In this document: positions 4,698 through 44,455 of the stretch, one piece after another
How the letters are laid out: each line of letters starts with the position of its first letter
Numbering within the stretch: the first letter of the stretch is position 1
Notes under the pieces: model-generated
What the model saw: only the letters and a program-made list of their open reading frames with translations
The model's database searches: none
What the model was told of the DNA's origin: nothing
Assembly (NCBI GenBank): GCA_946481205.1
Contig: CAMLNB010000002.1
Coordinates: forward strand, 1 to 61,438
Length of the DNA: 61,438 nucleotides
Direction: 5' to 3'
Origin: an uncultured Kangiella sp.
GTDB taxonomy: Bacteria > Pseudomonadota > Gammaproteobacteria > Enterobacterales > DSM-103792
Position numbers and translations under genes: made by a program

Positions 4698-5408
4698 ATG
4701 GAGCATCTCGCACAACATTTCTTCAGTTACTTCGACATTCGCCGCGCGCAGAGCGATGACGACATCGACGTTGCGCTGCGTTTGCGTTACGCCGTCTATT
4801 GCGAAGAGCTCGGTTACGAAGACAAGCATGCCTTTCCCGATGGTCGCGAGCAGGATCGTTTTGATCAGCGCGCCCAGCATTGTTTTTTGCTGCACCGAGC
4901 AACCGGTCGTGCCGCCGGTTGCTTCCGTTTGATCCTGAATCCGCCCGGCACCGATCCGCTGCCGTTCGAGCAAGTCTGTGCTGGCACCTTCCTGCCCGGG
5001 CCGCTGGCACCGGATCCGCAGCACCGGCAGATCTACGGCGAGATCTCCCGGCTGGCCGTGCACAGCGATTTCCGTCGTCGTGCCGGCGAGCAGCAATCAC
5101 CGCTTGGCCTTGCCGCTGAATCGGAGAGCGATCTGGACAGCCGGCATTACCCAATGGTTGCAATGGGGCTGTTTCTCGGCGCCTCGGCGCTGGCGTTGAA
5201 TCTGGGTCTGGATCGGGTCTATGTGATGATGGAGCCACGCTTGGCGCGCTTGCTGCGCAGCTGCGGCATCGTCTTCACCCAAATCGGCGACATCATTGAT
5301 TATCACGGCCGCCGCGGCCCGTTCGTGATCACCGGTGAAGGGTTGTACCGCACCTTGGCCGGCAGTGCACTGGAACTGCTCGAAGATCTGCGCGAGCGGC
5401 TACGCTAG
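4698..5408 (+). CDS. PEP-CTERM/exosortase system-associated acyltransferase
   Basis: This 236-residue cytosolic protein resembles the exosortase-associated acyltransferase family (TIGR03694), which has a GNAT-like fold related to autoinducer and N-acyl amino acid synthases. The N-terminal block has the family pattern LRLRYAVYCEELGYE near residue 30, followed by FPDGREQDRFD, GCFRLIL and an E-S-R segment in YGEISRLAVHSDFRRR. The start is ATG at 4698, behind a GGAG. By family knowledge it should move an acyl group, probably from an acyl carrier protein, to an amine; an ACP is encoded at 18028. It is followed 69 bases later by the ThiF-like gene, and the prsKRT regulators lie just beyond. Substrate unknown. 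Confidence 0.8.
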   Translation: MEHLAQHFFSYFDIRRAQSDDDIDVALRLRYAVYCEELGYEDKHAFPDGREQDRFDQRAQHCFLLHRATGRAAGCFRLILNPPGTDPLPFEQVCAGTFLPGPLAPDPQHRQIYGEISRLAVHSDFRRRAGEQQSPLGLAAESESDLDSRHYPMVAMGLFLGASALALNLGLDRVYVMMEPRLARLLRSCGIVFTQIGDIIDYHGRRGPFVITGEGLYRTLAGSALELLEDLRERLR

Positions 5409-5477
5409 TAGTCAGCATGAACCTGGCTTGACGACGGGCTGGCGCCGAGCCGCCCGCAGAGGGAGGGAGTCGCCGGC

Positions 5478-6341
5478 ATGGAAGCGTTTGACTATACCCG
5501 GGCTTACTCACGCAATATCGGTTGGTTGACCGAGCCGGAGCAGCAGCGTCTGCGCCGCAGCCGGATCGCCATTGCCGGATTGGGCGGGGTCGGCGGTGCC
5601 CATTTGCTGACGCTGACCCGGCTGGGTATCGGCGCGTTTCATATCTCCGATTTTGATCGGTTCGAGCAGCAGAATTTCAATCGTCAGGCCGGCGCGATGA
5701 TGCCGCACCTGCTGCAGGAAAAATGCCCGACGCTGGCCAAGATGGCGCGCGATATCAATCCGGAATTGCAGATCGAAACCTTTCCAGCCGGCATCAACGA
5801 CAGCAATCTCGATCAGTTTCTGCATGGCGTCGATGTCTACGTCGACAGCCTCGATTTTTTTGCCGTCGATATTCGCCGAAAAGTGTTCGCTGCCTGCGCC
5901 GAGCGCGGCATTCCGGCGCTGACTGCGGCGCCGCTTGGCATGGGCACGGCCTTTCTGGCGTTTCTGCCCGGTGGCATGAGTTTCGAGCAGTATTTCCGCA
6001 TGGAAGGTCTGCCCAAAACCGAACAGCTCGCGCGCTTCATTGCCGGCCTGAGTCCGCGGATGTTCCAGCGGCCTTACTTGCAAGTGCCGGAAGCGGTCAA
6101 TTTCAGCAAGGAGAAGGGCCCATCAACGGTGATGGCCTGTGATCTCTGCGCTGGCGTCATGGGAGTGGAAGTGCTGAAAGTGCTGCTCAAGCGCGGCCGC
6201 ATACTCGCCGCGCCGTGGGGTCTGCATTTCGACGCTTACCGACAGCGCTACAAAAAAACCTGGCGGCCTTTCGGCAATGCCAACCCTTTGCAGAAATTGC
6301 TGATTGCGCTGATCCGCAGCAAGCTGAATCTGAATGGTTGA
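5478..6341 (+). CDS. ThiF/MoeB/E1-like adenylating enzyme
   Basis: This 287-residue protein has the Rossmann nucleotide-binding motif GLGGVGGAHL near residue 35, the SDFDRFEQQNFNRQ stretch that binds ATP and magnesium in E1-like enzymes, and DVYVDSLD in the middle. Such enzymes adenylate the C-terminus of a ubiquitin-like or sulfur-carrier protein. Only one CxxC pair (CDLC) is visible near residue 218, whereas MoeB/ThiF zinc sites use two. No small protein ending Gly-Gly is encoded nearby. A strong GGGAGGGAG precedes the ATG. The gene follows the acyltransferase on the same strand and ends at a terminator, so the two probably form one unit. A role in thiamine or molybdopterin synthesis is not supported by the neighbours. 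Confidence 0.75.
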   Translation: MEAFDYTRAYSRNIGWLTEPEQQRLRRSRIAIAGLGGVGGAHLLTLTRLGIGAFHISDFDRFEQQNFNRQAGAMMPHLLQEKCPTLAKMARDINPELQIETFPAGINDSNLDQFLHGVDVYVDSLDFFAVDIRRKVFAACAERGIPALTAAPLGMGTAFLAFLPGGMSFEQYFRMEGLPKTEQLARFIAGLSPRMFQRPYLQVPEAVNFSKEKGPSTVMACDLCAGVMGVEVLKVLLKRGRILAAPWGLHFDAYRQRYKKTWRPFGNANPLQKLLIALIRSKLNLNG

Positions 6342-6442
6342 GCGCCGCTGACCGCTGCAGGAGCGGCATAAGCACACCCAGCAACCAGAATCTGCGGGTA
6401 GCTGATGGGCAGGTACGAGCAAAAGCAAGCAATCATCGACGC

Positions 6443-6480
6443 ACAAACAAAAAGGCGGGTTATCCCGCCTTTTTGTTTGT
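6443..6480. terminator. Bidirectional intrinsic terminator
   Basis: A perfect 17-bp stem has a 4-base loop. Its core is AAAAAGGCGGG/CCCGCCTTTTT, with A and T runs on both sides. It lies between two convergent genes (the ThiF-like gene and prsT) and can end transcription from either side. Confidence 0.92.
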
Positions 6481-6497
6481 TGCTAAAGCGCTAGTGC

Positions 6498-9281
6498 TTA
6501 CAGCTTCTTGTACAGCGCTTCGGCATCGGCCAGTTCACTGAATTCCTGCTTGCTTTCGAGCGCCGACTTCAGCAGTTTCTTGGCTTCAGCGGCATTGCCG
6601 AGTTTTTCATGGGCTAGCGCCGCGTGATACTTCATTTCGGCGTTGTCCGGTGCACCTTTCAGTGCGGCGTTGAACAGCTCTAGCGCTTTCTTGGCGTCGC
6701 CCAGCTTCAGATGGGCATAGCCTTGGGTGTCGAGAATGCTCGGCTGGGTCAGCTTCAGTGCTTCCAATTTGCCGAGGTAGGTTTTGGTATTGGCCTTGTC
6801 GCCCGACTCGGCATAAAGCCAAGTCATGTTGTTCAGCAGCACCGCGTCGGTCGGCAGCTTTTGTTCCAGCAGCTTGTATTGCTCAAACGCCTTGGGGTAG
6901 TTCTTCAGCTGTTGATAAATCAGCGCCAAACCAAAACGCGCGCCGCGGTCGTCCGGGTTTTGTTTCAACCAGTCGAGCAGCAGCGCATCGGCCGGTTGTT
7001 TGTTCGCCCGCACCATCGCCAGCGCGTGGCTATTGGCCAGGGAATAACTCGGCATCTGTTTGTAGGCTTTTTCATACGCCTTGGCCGCTTCGGCGTTCTT
7101 GCCTTCCGCGATCAGCGTGTCGGCTTCCAGCTGCTGGCCGATCACCAGATGCGGGAATTGCTTGATCAACTCAGCGGCACGCTGGTGTGCTTCGGCGAAG
7201 CGCTTGTCGCGCAGATCAATACGGGCAATCGCCAACATTGCCTGCCAGTGCTGCGGGTGGATGCGCAGCAAATCGGCCAAGGCTGCACTGGCGCCTTTGC
7301 GATCGCCGCTGTCTTCAAGCACATCGGCCAAGGCGAAGTAATATTCCGGCACTTTGTTGTTCAGCAGGATCGCTTTGCGGAACGACGAGATCGCCGAGCT
7401 GTTGTTTTTGTTGGCGCGCTGGGCAAGGCCCAGTGCCTGATGCGCGTCACCGGCATCCGGATTGGTGGCGACCATCTGCTGGGCAACAGCCAGTGCATCC
7501 ATCGGCTTGTTGGCTTGCAGCAGACGGCGCAAGTAGGCGTTGCCGGCCGCCAGCGAACGGTTGTCGAGATCCCAGGCTTTCTTCTGCCACTGCATACCTT
7601 GCTCGCGGTCGCCTTTGGCGTCATAGAGCTGCGACAGCTGCAGTGCGATGACATTCAGTGTCGGATTTTCTTTTTGCAGCGCATGCAGCTTCTTCAGTGC
7701 GGCATCGAAGTCCTTCTTGGCGACATCGACCCGGGCCTGGTTCAGGCGAGCAGTCAGGAATTCCGGCTTCAGCTTGACTGCTTGCTCGAACAGCTGCGCG
7801 GCGCGCGGCAGATCCTTGTTCGCCAGCTTGACCACACCAAGCATGTTGGCGGCCAGCGCGTTGTCCTTGTGTTTGGCATACAACTGCTCGGCGAGGGTGT
7901 TGGCTTTGTCGTTCTGCTTCTGCGACATGTAGGTCGAGACCAACATCAGGTCGCTGATCTGCAACTCAGCATTGTCCTGGGCAGCAGTTTCGAGTTGCGC
8001 AATCGCTTGGCCGGATTGGCCTTCCTGCAATTGCAGCAGCGCCAGACCGGTGCGCAGGTTGTCGGCATCCGGCGACAGTTCGACGGCGCGTTCCATCACT
8101 TCCGCCGCTTTGTCGAATTCTTGCAGCTGGATATACGCGGTGGCCTGGTACGCCATCAGCTGGACATCCTGCGGATGATTGCGCAGCGTTTCGGTGGCCA
8201 GACGCAGTGCATCTTTCGGCAGCCGCAGACCGAGTTTGGTTTGGATCTGCAGCTTGATCGCGCCGACATGGCCGGGTTTGGTTGCCAGCGCGCGCGCCAG
8301 CATGTCTTCGGCCTGACGCCAGTGCCGCTTCTGCACGTACAGATAACCTGCGAGCAATTGCGCTTCGGTGTAATTGGGCATGACCGACAGCGCTTGTTCC
8401 AGCGTGTTGATCGCTTCTTCCGGTTTTTGCTCCAACATTAGCGCTTTTGCTTTCAGGAACAAGCCGACCGGGTGCTTTGGTGTCGAGGCCAGCACGAGGT
8501 TGATATCGTTCCAGGCGTCTTTGACTTGGTTGAGGCTGATCTGGGCTTCGGCGCGGGCGAGTCGGATACGGGCATCGTTTGGTGCCAGATCGACGGCGGT
8601 GTTGATGGTTTTCATCGCCTCGTCTTTCTGGTTTTTCAGCACCAGCAGTTCAGTCAACAGCAGGTAGTTGTTGGTGAAGCTGGCATCCGCCTTGATCGCT
8701 TGCCGGATCAGCGTTTCGGCTTTGCCCAAGTCGTTGCGCAGCCGGGCAATCTGGGCCAGACCGTAGATCGCTTCGGCCTGATCCGGTTTCAGGCTGGTGG
8801 CTTGCAGCAGGGTTTTTTCGGCGTTCTCGATATTGCCTTGTTGCAGGATGGCGAGGCCGCGCAGACCGATGGTTTCGGCGCGGATCGCAACCGGGTCGCT
8901 GGCTTCTTCGGCGAGGTTGTCGAGGATCTGCTGCGGCTGGTACATCGACAGCCACGTCCGGCCGAGATTTTTCTGCCAGCGATTCTTCGGTGCTTTGAGT
9001 TGCCGGGCTTTGTCGTATTCTTTTTCTGCTGCCGGCATGTTGCCGTCCTGGTAATACAGATCGGCCAGCAGCAGTCGTGCTTCGATGCTTTCCGGCTTTT
9101 CCTGCAGGGCATTGCGCAGTTCAATGACCGCGCCACGGGTATCTTTTTCTTTCAGCAGTTTCTGGGCTTTGTCCCAAGCTTCTTGGTAATCGTCCGCGAA
9201 TGTAACGCCGGTGCACAGTGCACTGAGGCAGAGCGCGAGCGCCGAACGGCGCAGTTGGGCAGGCAAGACCTTGTGGTTCAT
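6498..9281 (-). CDS. prsT: PEP-CTERM system TPR-repeat protein PrsT
   Basis: This 927-residue exported protein is made almost entirely of tetratricopeptide repeats after a signal peptide ending near TFADD. Repeat signatures such as AEAIYGLAQIARL, YYFALADVLEDSG and HAALAHEKLGNAAEA recur every 34 residues. Length and position match PrsT (TIGR02917), described in the family as a lipoprotein. Here the cysteines of the signal region (LCLSALCTG) do not form a good lipobox, so cleavage by signal peptidase I is at least as likely. AAGGAG precedes the ATG. It is the last gene of the protease-prsK-prsR-prsT series, 69 bases after prsR. The family is tied by co-occurrence to exosortase A; its molecular role is not established. 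Confidence 0.9.
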   Translation of the reverse strand: MNHKVLPAQLRRSALALCLSALCTGVTFADDYQEAWDKAQKLLKEKDTRGAVIELRNALQEKPESIEARLLLADLYYQDGNMPAAEKEYDKARQLKAPKNRWQKNLGRTWLSMYQPQQILDNLAEEASDPVAIRAETIGLRGLAILQQGNIENAEKTLLQATSLKPDQAEAIYGLAQIARLRNDLGKAETLIRQAIKADASFTNNYLLLTELLVLKNQKDEAMKTINTAVDLAPNDARIRLARAEAQISLNQVKDAWNDINLVLASTPKHPVGLFLKAKALMLEQKPEEAINTLEQALSVMPNYTEAQLLAGYLYVQKRHWRQAEDMLARALATKPGHVGAIKLQIQTKLGLRLPKDALRLATETLRNHPQDVQLMAYQATAYIQLQEFDKAAEVMERAVELSPDADNLRTGLALLQLQEGQSGQAIAQLETAAQDNAELQISDLMLVSTYMSQKQNDKANTLAEQLYAKHKDNALAANMLGVVKLANKDLPRAAQLFEQAVKLKPEFLTARLNQARVDVAKKDFDAALKKLHALQKENPTLNVIALQLSQLYDAKGDREQGMQWQKKAWDLDNRSLAAGNAYLRRLLQANKPMDALAVAQQMVATNPDAGDAHQALGLAQRANKNNSSAISSFRKAILLNNKVPEYYFALADVLEDSGDRKGASAALADLLRIHPQHWQAMLAIARIDLRDKRFAEAHQRAAELIKQFPHLVIGQQLEADTLIAEGKNAEAAKAYEKAYKQMPSYSLANSHALAMVRANKQPADALLLDWLKQNPDDRGARFGLALIYQQLKNYPKAFEQYKLLEQKLPTDAVLLNNMTWLYAESGDKANTKTYLGKLEALKLTQPSILDTQGYAHLKLGDAKKALELFNAALKGAPDNAEMKYHAALAHEKLGNAAEAKKLLKSALESKQEFSELADAEALYKKL

Positions 9282-9350
9282 AAGCAGCTCCTTATGGTCC
9301 GTTTTGGCAACGGTATGCCGTTATCCGTAAGCGCGTCGGGAATGGCGCTC

Positions 9351-10742
9351 TCAATGGCTGCGCGCGACCAACTGATCGTTGTCGTGCAAATGATACTTGT
9401 CGACCAGCGCATACAGGGTCGGTCGAGTGATGCCGAGCAGTTCCGCGGCGCGTGACATATTGCCTTCGGCATGCGACAGCGCGCGCAACACCGCCTCGGT
9501 TTCGGCGTGCTCACGTACCTGACGCAGGTTCAGCGGCAGATCGCGCGACAGGCTTGGCTTCAGCTGCAAATCATCGGCCGAGATATGGCTGTCTTCGGCC
9601 ATGATCACTGCGCGCTTGATGCGGTTCTCCAGCTCGCGGACATTGCCGGGCCAGGCGTGTGATTCCATCGCGGCGATGGCGTCGTCGCGGAAGCCGCGAA
9701 TATGCCGGTGCAGCTGTTCGTTGAACTTTTGCAGGAAGGCCCGCGCCAGCAGAATCACGTCGCCACTGCGCGCCGACAACGGCGGAATATCGACCGTGAT
9801 TTCACTGAGCCGGTAATACAAATCCTCACGGAAGGTTTCCGTTTTGACCATTTCCGGCAGGCTGCGATGGGTCGCGCAGATGACCCGGACATCGACCGGA
9901 ATCTCTTCCCGGCCGCCTATGCGTTCAATCACCCGCTCCTGCAAAAAGCGCAGCAGCTTGGCTTGCAATGCCATGGGCAGATCGCCAATCTCATCGAGGA
10001 ACAGCGTGCCACCATCGGCGTATTCGATCTTGCCTTTGGTTTGCCGAGCAGCGCCGGTGAAGGCGCCTTTTTCGTAGCCGAACAACTCGCTTTCGAGCAG
10101 GTTTTCCGGGATCGCGGCGCAGTTGATTGCAACCAGTCTGCTGTTGGTGCGCGGGCTCAGTTCATGGACGGCGCGAGCGATGATTTCCTTGCCGGTACCG
10201 GAGTCGCCGAGCAGCAGCACCGTCAGATCGGTCGGGGCGACTTTTTCCACCATGCGGCAGACTTTCGCCATTTCCGGCGAGCCGGCGATGATGCCGGCCA
10301 GCGGCGCGCTGTTGGCTTTCTTTTGCAGCTGGCGGTTTTCATCTTCCAGCGCATGCAGATGGAACGCGCGCTGGACGATCAGCGACAACGTGCTGGCATC
10401 GATGGGTTTCTGGTAATAGTCGTAGGCACCGAGGCTGATGGCCTTGAGCGCATTCTCGCGCTCGTCATTGCCGGTGACGACGATGATTTTGGTGTGCGGC
10501 GCCAGCCGCAAAATGGCTTGCAGCGTCGCCAGGCCTTCGGAGGCGTTGGCTGCGTCGGGCGGCAGGCCCAGATCAAGGGTAACGACTTGCGGTTCGAATC
10601 GGCGTACCGCGGCAATTGCTTCTTCGCGGTTGCCGGCGACGGTGACGTCGCAGTCTTCAAAACACCAGCGCAGCTGGCTTTGCAGGCCGGGGTCGTCCTC
10701 GACCACCAATAGCCGCTTCTGACTCCTGTCCAAGCTTCCCAT
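9351..10742 (-). CDS. prsR: PEP-CTERM-box response regulator PrsR (sigma-54 activator)
   Basis: A 463-residue NtrC-type regulator. The N-terminal receiver domain has the acidic pair near residue 16 and the likely phosphorylated Asp57 in VVTLDLGLP. The central AAA+ domain has Walker A GDSGTGKE and the GAFTGA loop that contacts sigma-54. The C-terminal Fis-type helix-turn-helix is GNMSRAAELLGITRPTLYAL. It matches PrsR (TIGR02915), thought to switch on sigma-54 promoters of PEP-CTERM genes when phosphorylated by PrsK. ATG at 10742 and GTG at 10745 are both possible starts behind an AGGGA. prsK lies 173 bases upstream on the same strand. I found no convincing -24/-12 promoter in the intergenic regions I scanned, so its targets are probably elsewhere. 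Confidence 0.93.
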   Translation of the reverse strand: MGSLDRSQKRLLVVEDDPGLQSQLRWCFEDCDVTVAGNREEAIAAVRRFEPQVVTLDLGLPPDAANASEGLATLQAILRLAPHTKIIVVTGNDERENALKAISLGAYDYYQKPIDASTLSLIVQRAFHLHALEDENRQLQKKANSAPLAGIIAGSPEMAKVCRMVEKVAPTDLTVLLLGDSGTGKEIIARAVHELSPRTNSRLVAINCAAIPENLLESELFGYEKGAFTGAARQTKGKIEYADGGTLFLDEIGDLPMALQAKLLRFLQERVIERIGGREEIPVDVRVICATHRSLPEMVKTETFREDLYYRLSEITVDIPPLSARSGDVILLARAFLQKFNEQLHRHIRGFRDDAIAAMESHAWPGNVRELENRIKRAVIMAEDSHISADDLQLKPSLSRDLPLNLRQVREHAETEAVLRALSHAEGNMSRAAELLGITRPTLYALVDKYHLHDNDQLVARSH

Positions 10743-10915
10743 CACTCATTTCCCTGTGTCTTGCTACCCGGCTTCAGGCCGGGCTGTCCTCGGGCGGCAG
10801 GCGCCGCCGGTCTGGCTCGTCGCGTACGGTACAGCGATCGCACTGCCGGCTCAGACCGACAGCAAGTGTATAAGAATTTTACAGCAGTGTCCGTAGCTTT
10901 TACCCCGACCCGGTC

Positions 10916-14024: not shown

Positions 14025-14102
14025 GGCCGCCATTGACCAACCGCAGGGACGGTGGCCGCTGAGATTGATCGCACCGGCAAGCCACGCCTGGAGTTTTCAC
14101 GG

Positions 14103-17832: not shown

Positions 17833-18027
17833 GACGGTTATTGAGCGTTCTGTGCATCCAATGCGAGTGCTGATCAAGGTAACAAGCTTGCAGGTGAGCG
17901 GGCAAGCCGAACCGCTCCGGCAACGGCGACGGCCACGGCAATCTGCTGTATCCTGTGCCGCCCCGGCGCCGGCCCGAGCAAGGAGCTGCCCCGCCGGTTC
18001 AGACTGATTTGCCAGAGGAACAAGGAC

Positions 18028-20012: not shown

Positions 20013-20021
20013 GTGTTGGCC

Positions 20022-34300: not shown

Positions 34301-34316
34301 CACCAGTGTCCGCGTC

Positions 34317-35633: not shown

Positions 35634-35703
35634 GACGACCTTCCTTAGCTGAGGGTGCTGCGGCAACGCAGCACCGAAATGCAAAATCAGACAAACATAG
35701 AAC

Positions 35704-36927: not shown

Positions 36928-36962
36928 TGTGTTCTCTTTATCGCAGCCGTCGCGCAGCACGC

Positions 36963-38882
36963 TCAAGCGGCAACTTTCAGCAATTCATCTTTGACTTGTT
37001 CGACACTGTGGCCATCAAGATACAGCCGGCACCACAACTCCAGATTCAACAGCGCTTGCAGGTGATCGGTGTGATCAGCCTGCTGGCTCATATGCTCCTG
37101 CATCACCTGTTGCACCGCAGCCGGGGCAAACAGACCGCGCGCCGCCACCGTTTCCGGTGACAGAACTTGTTGCATCAGCGGCAGCAGCTGGCCACGCAGC
37201 CAGGCGCCCATTGGCGCACCAAAGCCGCGCTTCTTGCGATACAGGATCTCGTCTGGCAGCAGGCCACGCAGCGATTGCTTCAGCAGCGACTTCAATTCAC
37301 CGCCTTTGACCTTGATCGACGCTGGCATCTGGGCAGCGAGTTCCACCAGCTCATGATCCAGCAGCGGCACCCGGCACTCCAGCGATACCGCCATGCTCAT
37401 CTTGTCAGTCAGCAGCAGCAGATCGTCCGGCAACTGGGTCTGGGCATCGACCTGCAGCAAACGGTTCAGCTGATCCGGATTGTTGGCGCGGGCAAAGGCC
37501 TCGTGCACCGGATCGCGGGCGCCGCTGACCGGGCCCAGCAATTGCTGGATTGCGCTCGGCGCAAACACCTGGACATAGCTGCGGTAGCGATCTTCAAACG
37601 GCATGTCAGCCGAAAGAATAAAGCCACGCGCCAGTCGCGCCAGATCAAGCCAGCGGTTATGGCGGTCGGCCGGCAATTTTTTCGCGATGGCGCGCAGACC
37701 GCTACGGGCAAAGCTCGGCAGTCGCTGATAGCGAGCAGCGTAATGTTCGCCCAGATAGCGGCGATAGCCGCCAAACAATTCGTCACCGCCAACACCGCTG
37801 AGTATCACCGTGACATCACGGCGGGCAAATTCCGAGACCAAATAGGTGGTCAGGAAAGCGGAGTCGGCCATCGGTTCGTCGAGCTGCCACAGCAATTGTG
37901 GCAACAGCCGTGCGACATCCGGCTTGACCAGGATCTCGTGATGCTCGGTGCCAAACAAGTCGGCGACTTTGCGGGCATATGGCAGCTCGTTGTAGTAACG
38001 GCTGGCGGCGTCGCCGTCGAAACCGATCGCATAGGTTTTGACCGGGCCGCTGGCATGCTTGGCCATGTAGGCGACAACTGCGCTGGAATCGATACCGCCG
38101 GACAGAAAAGCGCCGAGCGGGACGTCGGCCACCATCTGCATTTTGGTGGCGCGGTCGAGTTCGGCGCGGACTTTCTCTTGCCACTGGCTCTCGCTGTAGC
38201 TCGCCAGGGAACTGCCGATCTGCCAATAACTTTTCAGTTTCAGCTGACCGGCTTTCAACACCGCGACGCTGGCGACCGGCAACTTCTGGATGCCGGCAAA
38301 CAAAGTCTGCGGTGCCGGTACATAACCGAGCGACAGGTACGCCGGCAGTGCTTCTTTGTTCAACGCCGGCTGCACGCCAGCCGGAAACAGGCTTTTCGCT
38401 TCCGAAGCAAAACTGAACGCCTTGCCATCAAAGTGGTAGTACAGCGGTTTGATACCGATCCGATCACGGGCGACGATCAACTGCTCGCTACGGCCATCCC
38501 AAAGCGCAAACGCATACATGCCGTTCAGTTTTTGCAACAGGGTTTCAAGACCCCAATGCAGATAGCCCCACAGGATCGTCTCGCAATCGGAGTGCGAGCG
38601 GAACACGTGGCCGGCGGCTTCCAGTTGTTGGCGCAATTCCTGGAAGTTGTAAACCTCGCCATTGGCGACCAATGCCAGCTGGCCATCGAGCGCGGTAAAC
38701 GGCTGATGGCCGCCAGCCAAATCGATAATCGACAAGCGCCGCATGCCGATGCCGACCGGGCCGGCTGTGAAAGCGCCTTCGTCATCGGGGCCACGATGGA
38801 TCATCGCATTGCCCATGGCGGTGAGCCGTTCCCGCGCGACGCTTTGGCCATCAAAGCGCAATTGTCCGTAGATGCCACACAT
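36963..38882 (-). CDS. Asparagine synthase-type amidotransferase, XrtA locus (copy A)
   Basis: A 639-residue glutamine-dependent enzyme. It begins MCGIYG, so the glutaminase nucleophile Cys is in place after Met removal, and RLSIIDLAGGHQPF and NGEVYNFQELR follow. The C-terminal ATP pyrophosphatase domain has FLSGGIDSSAVVAYM and LSGVGGDELFGGYRRYL. It should transfer ammonia from glutamine to an activated carboxylate, in this setting probably a uronic acid or a protein or peptide. It begins one base after the stop of copy B, so the two were probably duplicated in tandem or recruited together. XrtA loci often carry one or two such genes. Confidence 0.9.
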   Translation of the reverse strand: MCGIYGQLRFDGQSVARERLTAMGNAMIHRGPDDEGAFTAGPVGIGMRRLSIIDLAGGHQPFTALDGQLALVANGEVYNFQELRQQLEAAGHVFRSHSDCETILWGYLHWGLETLLQKLNGMYAFALWDGRSEQLIVARDRIGIKPLYYHFDGKAFSFASEAKSLFPAGVQPALNKEALPAYLSLGYVPAPQTLFAGIQKLPVASVAVLKAGQLKLKSYWQIGSSLASYSESQWQEKVRAELDRATKMQMVADVPLGAFLSGGIDSSAVVAYMAKHASGPVKTYAIGFDGDAASRYYNELPYARKVADLFGTEHHEILVKPDVARLLPQLLWQLDEPMADSAFLTTYLVSEFARRDVTVILSGVGGDELFGGYRRYLGEHYAARYQRLPSFARSGLRAIAKKLPADRHNRWLDLARLARGFILSADMPFEDRYRSYVQVFAPSAIQQLLGPVSGARDPVHEAFARANNPDQLNRLLQVDAQTQLPDDLLLLTDKMSMAVSLECRVPLLDHELVELAAQMPASIKVKGGELKSLLKQSLRGLLPDEILYRKKRGFGAPMGAWLRGQLLPLMQQVLSPETVAARGLFAPAAVQQVMQEHMSQQADHTDHLQALLNLELWCRLYLDGHSVEQVKDELLKVAA

Positions 38883-38883
38883 C

Positions 38884-40782
38884 TCAGTGCACCTGCGGCT
38901 GTGTGTTGCTGAGGAAGCGGGCGAACATCATCAGTGTCCACAGCGGTGCGCTGAAATCGCGCAGCCCGGATTGGTGCTGATCGAGCAGCGTCTGCAGATA
39001 CTGGCGATTGAACAGGCCGCTGTCCGCCAGCGGACCTTGCAGCAGCTCGTCGCGAATGCGCTGTTTCAGCGGGCCGCGGAACCAGTTGGCCAGCGGCACC
39101 GCGAAGCCCATTTTTTTGCGGTACATCAGATCGTGCGGCAGATGCGGCTCCATCGCCTTCTTCAGCAGATGCTTGCCTTCGCCATCATGCAGTTTCAGCT
39201 CTGGCGGCAGGCCCGACATCCATTCGACAAAGCGAACGTCGAGGAACGGCACCCGCACTTCCAGCGCATGCGCCATCGACGCGCGGTCGACCTTGGTCAG
39301 AATGTCGCCGACCAGATACGTTTTGAAATCCAGATACTGGATCAGGCTCAGCGGATGTTCGGTCGGCGCATTGGCGGCATGGGTGCGCATCACTTCCAGC
39401 GCGTTGTAGCCTTGCAGCCGTGACTTCAGTTGCGGGCTGAACAGCTCGCGCCGCCAGTCGTCTTTGAAAATGCTGACGGCATGGAAGTAGGCTTCGACGC
39501 TGTCGCGCGCCAAGCCCTGGAAGGTTGCCTTGGCGCGGATGAAACGTGGCGCGAAATCGAGCTTCGGATAAACCTTGCCGAGTGTGCCGAAAATGGCCTG
39601 GCGCAGACCGAGTGGCAGCCGCTCGCGTACACGCTCTTCGCGCATGTGCCACAGGTAACGACGATAACCAGCGAGATTTTCGTCACCACCGTCACCGGAC
39701 AACGCCACGGTAACGCGCTCGCGCGCCAGCTGGCAGACTCGATAGGTTGGCAGCGCCGAGCTGTCGGCATAAGGCTCATCATACAGCTTGGCCAATTCGT
39801 CAATCAGCGAGAAATCATCCGGATCAACCTGGCGAACGCTATGGTTGGTTTTGTAACGCTCGGCGATCTGGTTGGCGTATTCCGATTCGTTGAATTTCGG
39901 ATCGCCAAAGCTGATCGAGCAGGTGTTGACCGGCTCGTTGCTCTCCTTGGCCATCATCGCGACAACGGCGCTCGAATCGACGCCACCGGACAGAAAGGCG
40001 CCAAGCGGCACTTCCGACATCAGCCGAATGCGAACCGCTTCGCGCAGGCGTTCGGTCAATTCTTCGCGCGCTGCCGCTTCGCTTTGTACGGCAACCGGCT
40101 GGAACGGCACATCCCAGGTGATTTTCGGTGTGTGCACACGTTCACGCGTCACCAGCAAGGTGCCTGCGGGCGGCAGCTTCTTGGCGTCGGTGAAAATGGT
40201 CCGCGGTTCCGGCACATAGCCATAGGCAAAATAGTCTTCGACCGCAATCGGGTCGAGCTTGCGGACAAAGCCCGGATGTTGCAGCAGCACTTTCAGCTCA
40301 CTGCCGAAAATCAACTCACCGGTTTGCAGCTCGGCGTAGTACAGCGGCTTCTTGCCGAGGTGATCACGCGCCAGAAACAGGCAGTCGTGGCGACCATCGT
40401 AAATGGCGAAGGCAAACATGCCGCGCAAGCGGCGGACGCAGTCCTCACCCCATTCCAGCCAGGCGTGCAGCAGCACTTCGGTATCGGAATGGGTGTGGAA
40501 ATGATGGCCGGCCTTGATCAGATCGCGCTGCAGCTCAAGGAAGTTGTAGATCTCGCCGTTGAAGACGATGACCACTTTCTTGTCGTCGCTGTACATCGGT
40601 TGCTGGCCGGAGGCCAGATCGATGATCGACAGCCGCCGGTGACCGAGGCCGACACCGTTGCGATGAAACAGGCCTGATTCATCGGGGCCACGATGCACAA
40701 TGCTGTCAGTCATCCGACGCAGCAAACCCTCGTCAACCACACCGGGTGTGCGCAAATGAAACAGGCCGGCAATGCCGCACAT
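38884..40782 (-). CDS. Exosortase A system-associated amidotransferase 1 (copy B)
   Basis: A 632-residue asparagine synthase-type protein closest to the XrtA-associated family TIGR03108. It starts MCGIAGLFHLRTPG with the catalytic Cys. HRRLSIIDLASGQQPMY, FNGEIYNFLELQRDL, FLSGGVDSSAVVAMM and LSGDGGDENLAGYRRYL are intact, so both the glutaminase and ATP-dependent synthase sites look functional. AAGGGA precedes the ATG. It lies between the stp2 sugar transferase and copy A. Likely role: amidation of a uronic acid or another carboxylate in the polymer or its precursor (inference). Confidence 0.92.
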   Translation of the reverse strand: MCGIAGLFHLRTPGVVDEGLLRRMTDSIVHRGPDESGLFHRNGVGLGHRRLSIIDLASGQQPMYSDDKKVVIVFNGEIYNFLELQRDLIKAGHHFHTHSDTEVLLHAWLEWGEDCVRRLRGMFAFAIYDGRHDCLFLARDHLGKKPLYYAELQTGELIFGSELKVLLQHPGFVRKLDPIAVEDYFAYGYVPEPRTIFTDAKKLPPAGTLLVTRERVHTPKITWDVPFQPVAVQSEAAAREELTERLREAVRIRLMSEVPLGAFLSGGVDSSAVVAMMAKESNEPVNTCSISFGDPKFNESEYANQIAERYKTNHSVRQVDPDDFSLIDELAKLYDEPYADSSALPTYRVCQLARERVTVALSGDGGDENLAGYRRYLWHMREERVRERLPLGLRQAIFGTLGKVYPKLDFAPRFIRAKATFQGLARDSVEAYFHAVSIFKDDWRRELFSPQLKSRLQGYNALEVMRTHAANAPTEHPLSLIQYLDFKTYLVGDILTKVDRASMAHALEVRVPFLDVRFVEWMSGLPPELKLHDGEGKHLLKKAMEPHLPHDLMYRKKMGFAVPLANWFRGPLKQRIRDELLQGPLADSGLFNRQYLQTLLDQHQSGLRDFSAPLWTLMMFARFLSNTQPQVH

Positions 40783-40788
40783 ATTGAA

Positions 40789-41925
40789 TTATCCCTTCAA
40801 TTTGACCGCGGGATGCGCGGTCAGCAAATGGTCATACAAAGCCTGGTAGCGCGCCATCATGCCACTCAGGCTGAACTCTTCGACCGCGCGGGTACGTGCG
40901 GCGGCACCATGACGGCCAAGCAGGCCGCGGTCATCGACGTAGCGACGCATCGCCGCTGTCAGGGCCTCCGGCTGTTCAGCCGGCACCAGAAAACCGGTTT
41001 CGCCATCGACGATCAGTTCGGCATTGCCGCCAACCTTGGTCGCCACCACCGGCAAGCCACTGGCCATCGCTTCGAGCACGGTATTGGAAATACCTTCGGC
41101 GCGCGAGCCGAGCAGATAAATATCGGCATGACGCAGTCGCTGCGGAATGTCACTGGCAGCACCGGGCAGGCTGACGCAGTCCTGCAAGCCGAAGGCGGCA
41201 ACAAATTGCTGGCAGGCATCAAACAGCGGACCGTCGCCGACCAGCTCCAGTTGCAGCTCATGCTCGGGCCGCATCGATTTCAGCTGGGCGAACGCACGCA
41301 GCACATTCAGCGGGTCTTTGACGTCCTGCAGCCGACCTACGCTGATGAAGCGCAGGCTACGGCCTGGTTGTCCGGTCGTTGCCGGGGTAAAGCGATCGCA
41401 ATCGACGCCGTTGCAGATAATCTGAATCTTGTCGCCGGCCAAACCGACTTTTTCCCGCAAGTAGTCGCCAAGATCGTGCGACAAGGCGACCACCGTTTGG
41501 GCCAACGGCAGAATCAAGCGGCGCAGGCGCTGGTAACGCTTGTTGTTGCCGTCGAGATCGTTGGTGTCGCGGCCATGCTCGCTGTGCAGCCGCGCCGGCA
41601 CCCCGGCCAAACGGGCCGGCACCAGCGCTTCGAGCGCCGAGAGATTGCGCGTGTGCACCAAGGCCGGTTGCAACTGGCGCAGCAGTTTGTACAGACGCCA
41701 CCAGACCAGCAGATCGAGGCCGGGTTGTTTCTTCAGTTCATGAATGCTGACATCGCGCCGCTGCAGCCGTTCGGCAAACACCGGATCGTGGTCGGTGACG
41801 CAGATGATGGCGTGGCGATAGCGATCGGTTGGCAGATGGTTGATCAGATTGACCACGCCATTCTCCAAGCCGCCGATCGCGAATCGGTACAGCACGTGAA
41901 CCAACAGCGGCCGGGTGTCAGTCAT
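40789..41925 (-). CDS. PEP-CTERM/EpsH1-associated sugar transferase (stp2 family)
   Basis: From ATG at 41925 the protein has 378 residues. LLVHVLYRFAIGGLENGVVN and ARLHSEHGRDTNDLDGNN are strong marks of TIGR03088 (stp2), a GT4-type transferase found with XrtA. The donor site region reads LLGSRAEGISNTVLEAMA, with GLPVVATKVGGN following. Its start overlaps the xrtA stop (ATGA), so translation is coupled to the exosortase gene. It would add a sugar to the lipid-linked repeat. Confidence 0.9.
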   Translation of the reverse strand: MTDTRPLLVHVLYRFAIGGLENGVVNLINHLPTDRYRHAIICVTDHDPVFAERLQRRDVSIHELKKQPGLDLLVWWRLYKLLRQLQPALVHTRNLSALEALVPARLAGVPARLHSEHGRDTNDLDGNNKRYQRLRRLILPLAQTVVALSHDLGDYLREKVGLAGDKIQIICNGVDCDRFTPATTGQPGRSLRFISVGRLQDVKDPLNVLRAFAQLKSMRPEHELQLELVGDGPLFDACQQFVAAFGLQDCVSLPGAASDIPQRLRHADIYLLGSRAEGISNTVLEAMASGLPVVATKVGGNAELIVDGETGFLVPAEQPEALTAAMRRYVDDRGLLGRHGAAARTRAVEEFSLSGMMARYQALYDHLLTAHPAVKLKG

Positions 41926-43409
41926 GGCGTGGCACTCCGGGCTTGTTGCAATTGCTGCTGCAGCAGTGGCAGCAGGCTGGCGAGTTGTTGATCGACGGCG
42001 CTGTCGCTCAGGGTCGCTGGTCGCAGCACCAACACCAGCAGTGCCGGTGCCGCTTGCTGGCTTAAGCGTGCTTGCAATTGATGCCATTTGGCTTGCCAGG
42101 CTGGGCCGTAGTGACCGTCGGCAAAGACATACAGGCCGTGTTGCAACACGGTGTCGCCAGCAGGATTGTTGAAGCGCAGACCGGCGGCCTGAACCCCCAA
42201 TACGGTGCGCACATCGCTTTCCAGTCGACGCCAGCGTTCGTTGTCGTAGAGCCGGTGATAGCTGTTGACCAGCTCACTGCCGCGCTTGTCCTGCGGAAAG
42301 TATCCGGCAACGATCTGGATCTCTCCGTGCTGCAACAGCAGCAATTGCCGGGCGCCGATCAGTTCGGTGCCGAGCGGATCGGCCGGCAGTGTTTGCCAGT
42401 CGCCCGACACGGTCAATTCCGGCAATTGCGCGGCGGCGGCAATGCTGTCCTGGCGCGCAATGATGCCGGGGCCGGCAATCAGAACAAGGCCGATCACGGT
42501 CAATGCCGTGCGCGGTTTCGCGTGGCCGGTGGCGCTCGGCGCGTTGGTCACGCCAGCAATCGGACCGCCATCGCTGAAGGTGCGACCGAGCAGAAACAGC
42601 AGGAACATCACAATGCCGAAGAATATCCAGCCGTAGATCAGGTGATCCACGCCGACCGCGTACTCGTTGTCGGTCAGATGGGCGGTCAGGATGATGCCAA
42701 AGGCGCGCAGGCCATTGGCAACAATCGGGACGATAATGCTGAGCGTGATGAAGAAAGCGCGGCGATAGTAGGAGCGATAAGTCAGGTAGGCATACAAAGT
42801 GCCGAGTGCCAGGGAGGCGATCAGGTAGTTGATGCCGCTGCAGGCTTCTTCGACCAGGAAATTACCGTTCGGCAGGGCAATAAAGTGGCCGTCGCGAAAT
42901 ACCGGAATATCAAACAGCCGCAGCAGAGCGACCGCCATATCGGCGGTGATGTCTTGCAGCTTCGGCACCAGGAAATCGCCGAACGGCACCGCAAACCAAA
43001 GATAGAGCAGGGGGAACAGCAGGCGGCGGCAAACGGCAGTGCCGAGCACGGTCCATATCAATGCCTGCACGCTGAGTACCAGTGCGAAATGGCCCAGCAC
43101 CGCGATGCCGGCCAGTTCCCCAGCGATGAGCAGCAACGCTGCCAACGCCAGCAATATGATGCCCCAGCCACTAGGTTGCGGCAGCAGCGTCGCCAATTCC
43201 TTTTTGCGTTCATACATCAGCCAGACACTGATGATCGGAATCAGCACGCAGTGGTTGAAGGTTTTTGAGCGCCACCAGACATTGACCAGATCACTGCTGA
43301 CCGGCCACTGCGCCAGAATCAGCAGCGCAGACAAACCACCAAGCAGCAGCAAGGCGCGCTGCCAATGGCTGTCTGTCTGCTGTGGTATCGCCGTGATATC
43401 GGACATCAT
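41922..43409 (-). CDS. xrtA: Exosortase A with fused EpsI domain
   Basis: A 495-residue inner-membrane protein from ATG at 43409. About eight helices form the exosortase core with the catalytic set: Cys190 in VEEACSGINYL, Arg235 in ANGLRAFGIILTAH and His256 in GVDHLIYGW. These would cut PEP-CTERM proteins at the membrane and probably transfer them to another acceptor. After about residue 300 a periplasmic domain (SVVVDQQ-like region absent, but GYFPQDKRGSELVNSYHRLYD and LQHGLYVFADGHYGP visible) corresponds to EpsI/DUF3485, fused as in many XrtA proteins. GTG at 43415 is an alternative start that overlaps the FemAB stop. No PEP-CTERM substrate gene is nearby. Confidence 0.95.
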   Translation of the reverse strand: MMSDITAIPQQTDSHWQRALLLLGGLSALLILAQWPVSSDLVNVWWRSKTFNHCVLIPIISVWLMYERKKELATLLPQPSGWGIILLALAALLLIAGELAGIAVLGHFALVLSVQALIWTVLGTAVCRRLLFPLLYLWFAVPFGDFLVPKLQDITADMAVALLRLFDIPVFRDGHFIALPNGNFLVEEACSGINYLIASLALGTLYAYLTYRSYYRRAFFITLSIIVPIVANGLRAFGIILTAHLTDNEYAVGVDHLIYGWIFFGIVMFLLFLLGRTFSDGGPIAGVTNAPSATGHAKPRTALTVIGLVLIAGPGIIARQDSIAAAAQLPELTVSGDWQTLPADPLGTELIGARQLLLLQHGEIQIVAGYFPQDKRGSELVNSYHRLYDNERWRRLESDVRTVLGVQAAGLRFNNPAGDTVLQHGLYVFADGHYGPAWQAKWHQLQARLSQQAAPALLVLVLRPATLSDSAVDQQLASLLPLLQQQLQQARSATP

Positions 43410-43411
43410 GC

Positions 43412-44455
43412 TCACCCGAGATAACGTGACAGCATCGGGCCCAGCAACCGTGCCACCGGTAATGGCAGGCGCTTCCAGGTTTCGATGAACAGTTTGTATT
43501 TGGGATTCAGTGGATTGACGTCCGGCACCGATTGCGCCTTGACCAGGAAATACTCATAGGCCAAAGGCTGTGGTTCAAAACCCCAGTTCTTTTTGAAGTG
43601 ATAGGCGCCGGTGTCGATCTTGCTGCGACCGTAATCGAACAGACGGGCGCCGCGACCGCCGGCATGTTTCATCAGCGCCCAGTACAGCATGTCGTTGCCG
43701 GCCAGCTGACGTGCCGCTGCACCGCCGCCGCCGTAGTAGGGCAACACCTCGTCGCGGAAATAGAAACTCATGACGCTGGCAATCGCCGCACCGTCCTTGC
43801 GGATGGTCAGGATCTCGCAATCATCACCGAAGACATCGCGCAGCACGCGGAAATATCGCCGCGGAAACACCGGCGTACCCAGATTGCAGACGCTGGTGTC
43901 ATAGCAATCGAGAAAATCACGCAAGCCGTCATCGATGCTGTGGTCAAGGCCATTGCCGATGGCTTTGCGAATCATCGCCCGCTGCTTGCGCGGAATGGCG
44001 TTCAGATCGGTTTCGGCATCGCCGCTGATCGCTTTGCGAAAAGTGACGTGCAGGTTCTTGCGTGGCCAGTCGGCATGGACCGGTTGCCGGTTGCGCACTT
44101 CCAGTGCGTCCACTTGCAATTGCTGAGCGAGCGCTTGAGCCGCCTGGTCGAGCGCTTGTTGCGCTTCGTCATCGTCACTCAGGATGCCGCCATAAACACA
44201 GAACGGCAGCGCCACCAGGTTATGACCGAACAGCAGGCTGCGCACCTGGGCGAGCGGATACACGCCGACGATGCGCTCGCCGCGTTTGGCGGTCAAAAAA
44301 TGGCTGCGATGGCCGAGGCCCTCTTCCATGACCCGGCGCCAGCCGGCCAAATGAAAAAAGCTGCCCTGCGGGTGGGCGCGGACATAGCGATCCCAGCTGT
44401 CCTGATCGCCGGTTTGAAAGCTGTCAATACGTACTGGGGTCACACGCGCATCCAT
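43412..44455 (-). CDS. FemAB-related PEP-CTERM system-associated protein
   Basis: A 347-residue GNAT-fold protein of the XrtA-linked FemAB family (TIGR03019). Typical segments are AHPQGSFFHLAGWRRVMEE, ALPFCVYGGILSDDDEAQ, SFYFRDEVLPYYGGGGAAAR and the C-terminal FDYGRSKIDTGAYHFKKNWGF. FemAB relatives move an amino acid from aminoacyl-tRNA to an amine, so this enzyme may add an amino acid to a lipid-linked saccharide or to a protein anchor. ATG at 44455 and GTG at 44470 are both possible; neither has a good ribosome-binding site. It is coupled to xrtA through a near overlap. Confidence 0.9.
   Translation of the reverse strand: MDARVTPVRIDSFQTGDQDSWDRYVRAHPQGSFFHLAGWRRVMEEGLGHRSHFLTAKRGERIVGVYPLAQVRSLLFGHNLVALPFCVYGGILSDDDEAQQALDQAAQALAQQLQVDALEVRNRQPVHADWPRKNLHVTFRKAISGDAETDLNAIPRKQRAMIRKAIGNGLDHSIDDGLRDFLDCYDTSVCNLGTPVFPRRYFRVLRDVFGDDCEILTIRKDGAAIASVMSFYFRDEVLPYYGGGGAAARQLAGNDMLYWALMKHAGGRGARLFDYGRSKIDTGAYHFKKNWGFEPQPLAYEYFLVKAQSVPDVNPLNPKYKLFIETWKRLPLPVARLLGPMLSRYLG

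What the first reader, a model, noticed from the sequence alone, without database searches (positions are those of the whole stretch)
4698..44455. Many carboxylate-activating and amide-forming enzymes in one exosortase A locus
Seen: three ATP-grasp genes (20105, 21181, 26964), three AsnB-type genes (15113, 36963, 38884), a CapK-like adenylating enzyme (28198), a ThiF-like enzyme (5478), FemAB (43412), an acyltransferase (4698), an ACP (18028) and a transglutaminase-like protein (33275). Known: XrtA loci usually carry ACP, hydrolases 1 and 2, one AMP ligase, one PLP decarboxylase and one or two AsnB. Here the ligase and decarboxylase are absent from the window and ATP-grasp and CapK-like genes occupy their place. 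Inference: this could be a variant pathway that builds an aminoacyl- or peptide-decorated glycan, or a small molecule attached to PEP-CTERM proteins.
Basis: partly seen in the sequence, partly recalled or inferred. Interest (0 to 1): 0.75.

Follow-up and report, generated by a model that had tools for sequence, protein, structure and literature searches.

The report
Amide-building genes in exosortase A locus
This stretch is a bacterial gene cluster for making a surface sugar coat and attaching proteins to it; it carries an extra, recurring set of enzymes that probably strips an acetyl group from a sugar and puts an amino-acid-like group in its place.

Summary
The listed genes are real, and no TIGR03098 ligase or TIGR03099 decarboxylase was found in the window. 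That ATP-grasp and CapK genes replace them is not supported. The nearest named relative, Permianibacter sp. IMCC34836, has the same locus, and its ligase/decarboxylase pair lies 1.5 Mb away with no second XrtA. Of 36 genomes with XrtA and this ATP-grasp type, 34 have the decarboxylase, against 26 of 71 other XrtA genomes. New: (1) these ATP-grasp genes travel with a distinct CE4 deacetylase, pdaY (25 of 26 ATP-grasp genomes not used for its profile; 1 of 71 other XrtA genomes), here overlapping by 4 bp. (2) The glutaminase-dead AsnB (15113) is a widespread XrtA companion (49 of 73 XrtA genomes, 5 of 296 others; Cys2 aligned in 0 of 53). (3) The decarboxylase's closest solved relative is butirosin BtrK, an aminoacyl-ACP decarboxylase (3 of 3 tested); the one ligase tested resembles NRPS adenylation domains. 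Best reading: an XrtA exopolysaccharide locus with an accessory "deacetylate, then N-acylate" module that puts an amino-acid-type group on an amino sugar. The chemistry is inferred, not shown.

The parts
4596..5408 (+). PEP-CTERM/exosortase-associated acyltransferase (TIGR03694)
   Evidence: 205.3 bits vs cut-off 112
5478..6341 (+). ThiF/E1-like protein (NF006077)
   Evidence: 435 bits vs cut-off 266; also beside the acyltransferase in Permianibacter
6498..9281 (-). PrsT, XrtA-system TPR protein (TIGR02917)
   Evidence: 569 bits vs 312
9351..10745 (-). PrsR response regulator (TIGR02915)
   Evidence: 743 bits vs 503
10916..13036 (-). PrsK histidine kinase (TIGR02916)
   Evidence: 703 bits vs 300
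14052..15053 (+). pdaX: CE4 deacetylase; Asp-Asp and His-x3-His kept in 10 of 10 aligned rows (window included)
   Evidence: PF01522 87 bits; alignment A4
15113..16909 (-). asnB3: AsnB-family amide synthetase that lacks the glutaminase Cys2
   Evidence: PF00733 244 bits, below TIGR01536/TIGR03108 cut-offs; residue analysis; AlphaFold pLDDT 92.7
16906..17889 (-). TPR protein next to asnB3 (start uncertain)
   Evidence: TPR Pfam hits; homologues next to asnB3 in 5 of 53 class-sample loci and in Permianibacter and G050
18028..18276 (+). acyl carrier protein
   Evidence: PF00550 26.5 bits vs 20.8; best solved match 2LKI 89.5 bits
18370..19149 (+). hydrolase 2 (TIGR03101-like, below cut-off)
   Evidence: 158.5 vs 202.75
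19086..20012 (+). hydrolase 1 (TIGR03100), Cys in the nucleophile elbow
   Evidence: 346.6 vs 168; GxCD[AG]A in 23 of 25 sequences
20105..21178 (+). AG1: sugar-transfer-associated ATP-grasp
   Evidence: PF14397 134.6 bits; K144, D314, E326, N328 invariant in the 43-row alignment
21181..22371 (+). AG2: second ATP-grasp type, 2 bp after AG1
   Evidence: AlphaFold/Foldseek; gap
22368..23324 (+). pdaY: CE4 deacetylase overlapping AG2 by 4 bp
   Evidence: PF01522 49 bits; Asp-Asp and both His invariant in 13 of 13 rows, window included; linked to AG
23321..24808 (+). Wzx-type MOP flippase overlapping pdaY by 4 bp
   Evidence: NF007773 147 bits, below its cut-off 273; gap
26964..28073 (-). AG3: sugar-transfer-associated ATP-grasp
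   Evidence: PF14397 138.7 bits
28198..29544 (-). CapK/PaaK-like adenylate-forming enzyme
29541..31013 (-). O-antigen-ligase-like protein (TIGR03097)
   Evidence: 457.6 vs 188
30898..32154 (-). GT4 glycosyltransferase
32037..33245 (-). XrtA glycosyltransferase TIGR04063
   Evidence: 626.7 vs 442
33275..34333 (-). membrane transglutaminase-like protein
   Evidence: PF01841 18.8 bits, below cut-off; Cys/His/Asp kept in 3 of 3 rows
34317..35777 (-). nucleotide-sugar dehydrogenase (UDP-glucose dehydrogenase type)
   Evidence: TIGR03026 373 vs 190
35704..36966 (-). XrtA glycosyltransferase TIGR03087
   Evidence: 464 vs 317
36963..38882 (-). asnB2: glutamine-dependent AsnB with Cys2
   Evidence: TIGR01536 488 vs 267; N-terminus MCGI
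38884..40782 (-). asnB1: XrtA amidotransferase TIGR03108
   Evidence: 1024 vs 817
40789..42087 (-). XrtA glycosyltransferase TIGR03088
   Evidence: 464 vs 409
41922..43415 (-). exosortase A, XrtA (TIGR03109)
   Evidence: 343 vs 208
43412..44470 (-). FemAB-family XrtA protein (TIGR03019; VimA-like)
   Evidence: 476 vs 260
44508..45398 (-). XrtA CE4 deacetylase TIGR03006
   Evidence: 441 vs 276
45399..50239 (-). TIGR03016, tyrosine autokinase, chain length and export proteins of the XrtA system
   Evidence: all four pass cut-offs

Best explanation
The window holds an XrtA (exosortase A) exopolysaccharide locus whose ligase/decarboxylase pair has probably moved elsewhere on the chromosome, as in its relatives. 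Added to it is an accessory N-acylation module: pdaY removes an N-acetyl group from a sugar in the cytoplasm, and the adjacent ATP-grasp enzymes (AG1, AG2, probably AG3) activate a carboxylate as acyl phosphate and couple it to the exposed amine before the flippase exports the unit. The acyl group is probably amino-acid derived and connected with the ACP route: the distant A-domain-like ligase loads an amino acid on the ACP, and the BtrK-like decarboxylase decarboxylates it there. asnB3 forms a second amide from an adenylated carboxylate with an amine other than glutamine-derived ammonia, while asnB1/asnB2 amidate uronic acids (a UDP-glucose-dehydrogenase-type gene is in the locus). Shown by computation: locus identity, displaced pair in relatives, ATP-grasp/pdaY/decarboxylase co-occurrence, loss of the glutaminase site. 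Inferred: substrates, order of steps, acceptor sugar, cellular place, and the pair's presence in this very genome.
For: Same locus in Permianibacter (G094), ligase and decarboxylase 1.5 Mb away, one XrtA match. Decarboxylase over cut-off in 34 of 36 genomes with ATP-grasp and XrtA, versus 26 of 71 other XrtA genomes at E <= 1e-100 (24 of 71 over cut-off). pdaY in 37 of 38 ATP-grasp genomes, 25 of 26 of those not used for its profile, versus 1 of 71; within 35 kb of XrtA in 34 of 34 genomes with both on one contig; next to an ATP-grasp gene in 10 of 14 loci taken one per genus or lineage, 3.4 expected, p = 6e-4; AG1-AG2-pdaY-wzx spaced 2, -4, -4 bp. Likely catalytic residues kept in pdaY (13 of 13 rows), pdaX (10 of 10 rows) and AG1 (43 rows). 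Decarboxylase: best solved match BtrK in 3 of 3 tested, of 20 fetched; ligase (one tested): best solved match the gramicidin A-domain; SFD[YA]G with the A4 Asp in 13 of 13 deduplicated ligases. asnB3: Cys aligned to Cys2 in 0 of 53, PPi loop in 53 of 53. Precedent: CE4 deacetylase then aminoacyl transfer plus AsnB amidation in the Wbp/Vim linking sugar (PMC7468200 passages).
Against: The window's own genome is not held, so its ligase/decarboxylase were not seen. No substrate is known to me for any member. pdaX-asnB3 pairing is weak in the broad sample (8 of 26 adjacent, 4.1 expected, p = 0.04); asnB3 sits more often beside the TIGR03097 gene (13 of 27). One ATP-grasp genome (G025) lacks pdaY; two XrtA genomes with ATP-grasp (G016, G019) lack the decarboxylase; G516 (with one in-frame stop) has pdaY without an ATP-grasp match at E 1e-40, G075 without one at 1e-60. 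ATP-grasp and pdaY also occur together in two genomes without XrtA or decarboxylase over cut-off (G021, G023), so the module does not need either. Uronic-acid carboxylate as the ATP-grasp substrate is equally compatible with the enzyme class. Genomes of one genus are counted separately in the Fisher tests, and several 'not used' genomes are congeners of genomes that gave sequences to the pdaY profile.
Confidence: 0.48

Rival explanations
1. The ATP-grasp enzymes amidate the carboxylate of a uronic acid in the repeat unit with an amine or amino acid (teichuronopeptide/TupA-like logic); pdaY acts on another sugar of the same unit.
For: A UDP-glucose-dehydrogenase-type gene and two AsnB enzymes with Cys2 are in the locus; ATP-grasp enzymes can use either carboxylate; a decarboxylase can supply amines. 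TupA is recalled, not tested.
Against: The asnB2-stp1-ugd-tgl block occurs, among the loci mapped, only in Permianibacter and Arsukibacterium besides the window, whereas pdaY is found in 37 of 38 ATP-grasp genomes.
Confidence: 0.25
2. One reading: a variant XrtA pathway in which ATP-grasp and CapK enzymes replace the ligase and decarboxylase.
For: Neither gene was found in the window; the window's genome is not held.
Against: 3 of 3 family genomes have both elsewhere; ATP-grasp co-occurs with the decarboxylase (34 of 36); ligase and decarboxylase lie in the same locus as ATP-grasp, CapK and asnB3 in Arsukibacterium, Lacimicrobium, Sediminihaliea and Bowmanella.
Confidence: 0.05
3. The module builds the acceptor (linking sugar) to which XrtA joins PEP-CTERM proteins, rather than a decoration of the polymer.
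For: Wbp/Vim precedent, with the authors' own speculation on XrtA (PMC7468200); pdaY lies close to XrtA.
Against: The ATP-grasp type is rare: 2 of 369 class genomes, both among the 73 with XrtA; a universal acceptor would need universal enzymes. The core TIGR03006/TIGR03019/TIGR03108 trio fits that role better. A C-terminal pattern scan found no PEP-CTERM protein in the window.
Confidence: 0.12
4. The amide-forming genes make a free small molecule or peptide unrelated to the glycan.
For: ACP, adenylating and ATP-grasp enzymes are typical of small-molecule clusters; AG relatives occur in tandem arrays elsewhere (L055).
Against: Overlap of pdaY with a Wzx flippase gene, flanking glycosyltransferases, and pdaY within 35 kb of XrtA in 34 of 34.
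Confidence: 0.07

Closest known systems
XrtA/PEP-CTERM exopolysaccharide locus (Haft 2006, PMC1569441, one passage seen; NCBIfam TIGR03109 and companions)
   Same: XrtA, PrsT/PrsK/PrsR, TIGR03087/03088/04063 glycosyltransferases, FemAB, deacetylase, TIGR03108, chain length, export, hydrolase 1 pass curated cut-offs
   Different: Adds ATP-grasp, pdaY and CapK genes and a glutaminase-dead AsnB; the ligase/decarboxylase pair is not in the locus; hydrolase 2 is below its cut-off
Wbp/Vim linking-sugar pathway of Porphyromonas gingivalis (PMC7468200)
   Same: CE4 deacetylase beside a FemAB/VimA-like gene, plus an AsnB amidotransferase; amino acid on a de-acetylated sugar
   Different: No WbpB/D/E-type hits among scanned ORFs; different sorting enzyme; extra ATP-grasp and pdaY genes
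Butirosin side-chain pathway (BtrI ACP, BtrK decarboxylase, BtrJ ATP-grasp; functions recalled apart from the PDB name of BtrK)
   Same: TIGR03099's best solved match is BtrK (261 vs 171 bits to the next family); ACP, ATP-grasp and an amino-sugar product in view
   Different: The loading enzyme is an A-domain-like ligase, not ATP-grasp; AG1-3 were not compared with BtrJ; glycan, not an aminoglycoside
Beta-lactam synthetase / TsnB9 (AsnB-fold amide formers)
   Same: asnB3 model is nearest to TsnB9 and beta-lactam synthetase in the PDB; glutaminase site lost as in beta-lactam synthetase (recalled)
   Different: Identity 15-17 percent; human and E. coli asparagine synthetases score almost as well, so the fold match does not decide function

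Membership tests
XrtA/PEP-CTERM exopolysaccharide system | XrtA TIGR03109 over cut-off | tested here: met
   343 vs 208 bits
XrtA/PEP-CTERM exopolysaccharide system | Companion EPS genes (TIGR03007, 03018, 03027, 03087, 03088, 03006, 03019, 03108) | tested here: met
   all over cut-off
XrtA/PEP-CTERM exopolysaccharide system | PEP-CTERM substrate proteins in the genome | not testable with these tools
   none in the window by a C-terminal pattern scan; own genome not held
XrtA subtype with TIGR03098 ligase and TIGR03099 decarboxylase | both genes in the genome | not testable with these tools
   not found in the window; present in 3 of 3 family genomes
ATPgrasp_ST (PF14397) | profile match for AG1 and AG3 | tested here: met
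   134.6 and 138.7 vs 31.4 bits
ATPgrasp_ST (PF14397) | profile match for AG2 | tested here: not met
   no PF14397 hit at E 0.01; a different ATP-grasp type by fold
XrtA amidotransferase TIGR03108 | asnB3 over cut-off | tested here: not met
   259 vs 817 bits
Glutamine-dependent AsnB | asnB3 has N-terminal Cys nucleophile | tested here: not met
   window residue is Thr; Cys aligned at position 2 in 0 of 53 class-sample homologues, though one (L201, MTGMCGF) has a second Met directly before a Cys
Glutamine-dependent AsnB | asnB3 keeps the ATP-pyrophosphatase SGGxDS loop | tested here: met
   53 of 53, and the window
Wbp/Vim pathway | deacetylase + FemAB/VimA-like + WbpS-like AsnB | tested here: met
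   44508, 43412, 38884 over their TIGR cut-offs; likeness to VimA and WbpS as stated in PMC7468200
Wbp/Vim pathway | WbpB/D/E sugar genes in the locus | tested here: not met
   only a nucleotide-sugar dehydrogenase among scanned ORFs
Butirosin-like aminoacyl-ACP route | decarboxylase nearest BtrK | tested here: met
   3 of 3 relatives' TIGR03099 proteins tested; no such gene in the window
Butirosin-like aminoacyl-ACP route | ATP-grasp related to BtrJ | not tested
   no BtrJ sequence was at hand
Butirosin-like aminoacyl-ACP route | decarboxylation of an ACP-bound amino acid | not testable with these tools
   needs biochemistry

The most novel reading that the evidence does not exclude
XrtA loci contain an unrecognised aminoacyl-ACP assembly line of the butirosin kind (A-domain-like ligase, ACP, BtrK-like decarboxylase, Cys-nucleophile 'hydrolase 1' as acyltransferase) whose amino-acyl product is placed, directly or through ATP-grasp and glutaminase-dead AsnB amide synthetases, on de-acetylated amino sugars. 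That aminoacyl sugar provides the amine which exosortase A uses as acceptor for cleaved PEP-CTERM proteins, as the seryl/glycyl sugars do in type IX secretion.
Probability: 0.15. Interest if true: 0.85.

Novelty: new variant of a known kind. Interest (0 to 1): 0.52.

Why it matters
What exosortase A attaches its proteins to, and what the ACP, ligase, decarboxylase and hydrolases of its loci make, has been open since 2006 as far as I know. The BtrK and A-domain relationships, the ATP-grasp/pdaY linkage and the glutaminase-dead AsnB family turn that into concrete, single-enzyme tests, and give a marker (asnB3) found in two thirds of sampled XrtA genomes; the window's copy passes no NCBIfam cut-off.

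Tried and rejected
Rejected: ATP-grasp/CapK as replacements for the ligase/decarboxylase. Rejected as a general rule: a pdaX-asnB3 pair; it looked strong in near relatives (4 of 7, 0.7 expected) but weak in the class sample (8 of 26, 4.1 expected, p = 0.04). Considered: asnB3 active as glutaminase through the Cys at position 5 (MSGICGW type); rejected because the R49 loop (gapped in 50 of 53) and mostly the Asn/Glu/Asp positions are lost too. Fold search of asnB3 did not discriminate between AsnB and beta-lactam synthetase. Profile search of AG1 against the PDB gave only weak C-terminal matches to RimK-like glutamate ligases. Full-text searches for ATP-grasp with PEP-CTERM or exosortase gave one paper, with those terms only in its reference list; ATP-grasp with exopolysaccharide, amide and uronic acid none; 'sugar-transfer associated ATP-grasp' none; butirosin with exosortase none. 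A looser search listed papers with ATP-grasp and exopolysaccharide that I did not read, e.g. PMC12419801. The library holds only openly licensed papers. Dropped before counts: of the 77 loci, 37 were passed to the genome searches; left out were 7 of L001-L044 (L002, L009, L014, L021, L026, L035, L042) and the 33 loci L045-L077; asnB3 matches of 310-326 bits (5 of 59 genomes) were not counted as asnB3; in the relatives' shuffle test I used 14 loci chosen by me, one per genus or lineage; G094 and G552 were taken out of the 73 XrtA genomes for the comparison group of 71. Papers: PMC7468200, PMC11631085, PMC11340318 and PMC1569441 were seen as found passages only; all others as search listings.


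Full report
WHAT IS THERE. The window carries an XrtA locus between about 4.6 and 50.2 kb. XrtA, PrsT, PrsR, PrsK, the three XrtA glycosyltransferases, FemAB, the TIGR03006 deacetylase, TIGR03108, TIGR03097, TIGR03016, autokinase, chain length, export and hydrolase 1 pass curated cut-offs; hydrolase 2 does not (158.5 vs 202.75). Neither TIGR03098 nor TIGR03099 was found in the window.

THE WINDOW'S ORIGIN. No whole genome is held. AG1's best named relatives are Permianibacter (70-71 percent). G094, whose contig length (3,483,234) equals that of the Permianibacter sp. IMCC34836 protein, carries the same genes in the same order; it has two AG3-like frames, one of them 131 aa, where the window has one, and two extra frames next to them.

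THE LIGASE AND DECARBOXYLASE ARE DISPLACED, NOT REPLACED. In G094 the only XrtA match is at C1:231,656 and the pair is at C1:1,770,709-1,773,504; in G050 XrtA is at 2,386,912 and the pair at 1,122,726-1,125,526; in G075 they are on different contigs. In G094 and G050 the pair stands without ACP, hydrolase or glycosyltransferase matches around it; its neighbours there include dxs, an OmpA-like gene and a subtilase-like gene, plus one unannotated gene with a weaker homologue beside the G050 pair; in G050 an AG3-type ATP-grasp gene lies about 10 kb from the pair. In Arsukibacterium, Lacimicrobium, Sediminihaliea and Bowmanella the pair lies in the same locus as ATP-grasp, CapK and asnB3. A genome-contig scan gave 77 loci; 37 of them (all from L001-L044) were passed on and lie in 36 genomes. 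TIGR03098 is over cut-off in 31 of these 36 (one more is full-length just below it, one is split over two contigs, three lack it) and in 3 of 3 family genomes. With the family genomes added, TIGR03099 is over cut-off in 35 of 39 and XrtA in 37 of 39. In an even sample of 369 genomes of the class, XrtA is in 73, the decarboxylase in 28 of those 73 at E <= 1e-100, 26 of them over cut-off, and AG1-type ATP-grasp in 2 of 369 at E <= 1e-40. So the decarboxylase is in 34 of 36 genomes having ATP-grasp and XrtA, against 26 of 71 other XrtA genomes (24 of 71 over cut-off; p = 2e-9 for 26 of 71). Genomes of one genus (8 Massilia and 6 Arsukibacterium among others) are not independent and many sampled genomes are drafts, so the p value is too small; the direction is clear.

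THE ATP-GRASP/PDAY MODULE. AG1, AG2, pdaY and wzx follow each other at 2, -4 and -4 bp, after ACP and the two hydrolases on the same strand. A pdaY profile (A3) finds a strong match in 37 of 38 ATP-grasp genomes, 25 of 26 of those that gave no sequence to the profile (several are congeners of genomes that did), and in 1 of 71 other XrtA genomes (G516, with one in-frame stop). The lower group of matches (about 92-119 bits) is a separate family; in the three cases I compared by position (G438, G641, G761) it is the pdaX gene. In 34 of 34 genomes with both on one contig, pdaY is within 35 kb of XrtA; in two more they are on different contigs. pdaY is next to an ATP-grasp gene in 10 of 14 loci (one per genus or lineage), 3.4 expected from shuffled orders, p = 6e-4. 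Exceptions: G025 lacks pdaY; G075 and G516 have it without a strong ATP-grasp match; G021 and G023 have the module without an XrtA match. AG2 is an ATP-grasp by fold.

ASNB3. The 15113 gene belongs to a family found at 500 bits or more in 54 of 369 class genomes, 49 of them XrtA-positive (49 of 73 versus 5 of 296). Of the 49, 29 have it on the XrtA contig: 25 within 50 kb and 4 at 70 kb to 2 Mb; in 20 it is on another contig. In 53 of 53 fetched homologues no Cys aligns with Cys2 (Ser 17, Thr 9, Asn 6, others; two gaps); one (L201) could regain it from an internal start. The R49 loop is gapped at that residue in 50 of 53; SGGxDS is intact in 53 of 53. Control: of 28 full-length asnB1/asnB2 entries (some loci counted twice), 24 have MCG[IVL], two more MCGF, and two have unresolved N-termini. 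The AlphaFold model (92.7) matches TsnB9, beta-lactam synthetase and AsnB. Its preferred neighbour in the class sample is the TIGR03097 gene (13 of 27, 4.1 expected) rather than pdaX (8 of 26).

WHAT THE ACP ROUTE MAY MAKE. The closest solved relative of the Permianibacter decarboxylase is BtrK, L-glutamyl-[BtrI ACP] decarboxylase, at 261 bits; the next, a diaminopimelate decarboxylase, scores 171. Two further relatives agree (232 vs 161 and 258 vs 180 bits); the other fetched decarboxylases were not tested. The best solved matches of the one ligase tested (G050) are gramicidin-synthase adenylation domains (304 bits), and the A4 Asp that binds the amino group in such domains (role recalled) is present in 13 of 13 deduplicated ligases. 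Hydrolase 1 has Cys in the nucleophile elbow in 23 of 25, as acyltransferases such as PhaC do (recalled). Together this suggests an aminoacyl-ACP rather than an acyl-CoA route. This is inference from homology.

MECHANISM. Precedent from print: in P. gingivalis a CE4 deacetylase (VimE, putative), an amino-acid transferase related to TIGR03019 (VimA) and an AsnB (WbpS) make 2-N-seryl, 3-N-acetylglucuronamide, and the authors speculate that XrtA loci make an amino-acid-modified sugar (PMC7468200, passages). The window has that trio (44508, 43412, 38884) and, beyond it, pdaY with ATP-grasp and, less firmly, pdaX with asnB3: three types of amide-forming enzyme beside three CE4 deacetylases. I therefore favour 'deacetylate, then N-acylate' of amino sugars of the repeat unit. 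The main rival is amidation of a uronic acid by the ATP-grasp enzymes.

NOVELTY. No paper found in the searched library joins ATP-grasp with exosortase beyond a reference list, or butirosin with exosortase. The XrtA system and the general idea of an amino-acid-modified sugar are known; the module, the asnB3 family's distribution and the BtrK link did not turn up in those searches.

Noticed in passing
L055:4900-13700: In Roseovarius albus about seven or eight consecutive stretches match sugar-transfer-associated ATP-grasp genes in tandem, all on one strand.
   Followed up: no
L094:2000-3500 (G094:C1 about 247.0-248.5 kb): Permianibacter has two AG3-like frames side by side, one only 131 aa but closely matching the window's AG3, suggesting a truncated copy next to a full-length paralogue.
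   Followed up: no
window 4596-6341: The exosortase-associated acyltransferase and the ThiF-like gene are neighbours here and in Permianibacter; the NCBIfam families hit by the ThiF gene include longer proteins PRK14851/PRK14852 (679 and 989 positions).
   Followed up: no
window 4596-50239: No initiating sugar-transferase family was hit among the scanned ORFs, and a C-terminal pattern scan found no PEP-CTERM substrate protein.
   Followed up: partly
L164-L216: asnB3 is most often next to the TIGR03097 O-antigen-ligase-like gene (13 of 27 loci holding both, 4.1 expected).
   Followed up: partly
L192: G472 has ligase, decarboxylase, both hydrolases, ACP, asnB3, FemAB and XrtA-type glycosyltransferases together but no XrtA match at E 1e-60.
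   Followed up: no
window 33275-38882: The block asnB2-stp1-ugd-transglutaminase-like occurs, among the loci mapped, only in Permianibacter and Arsukibacterium besides the window, and may have moved as a unit.
   Followed up: no
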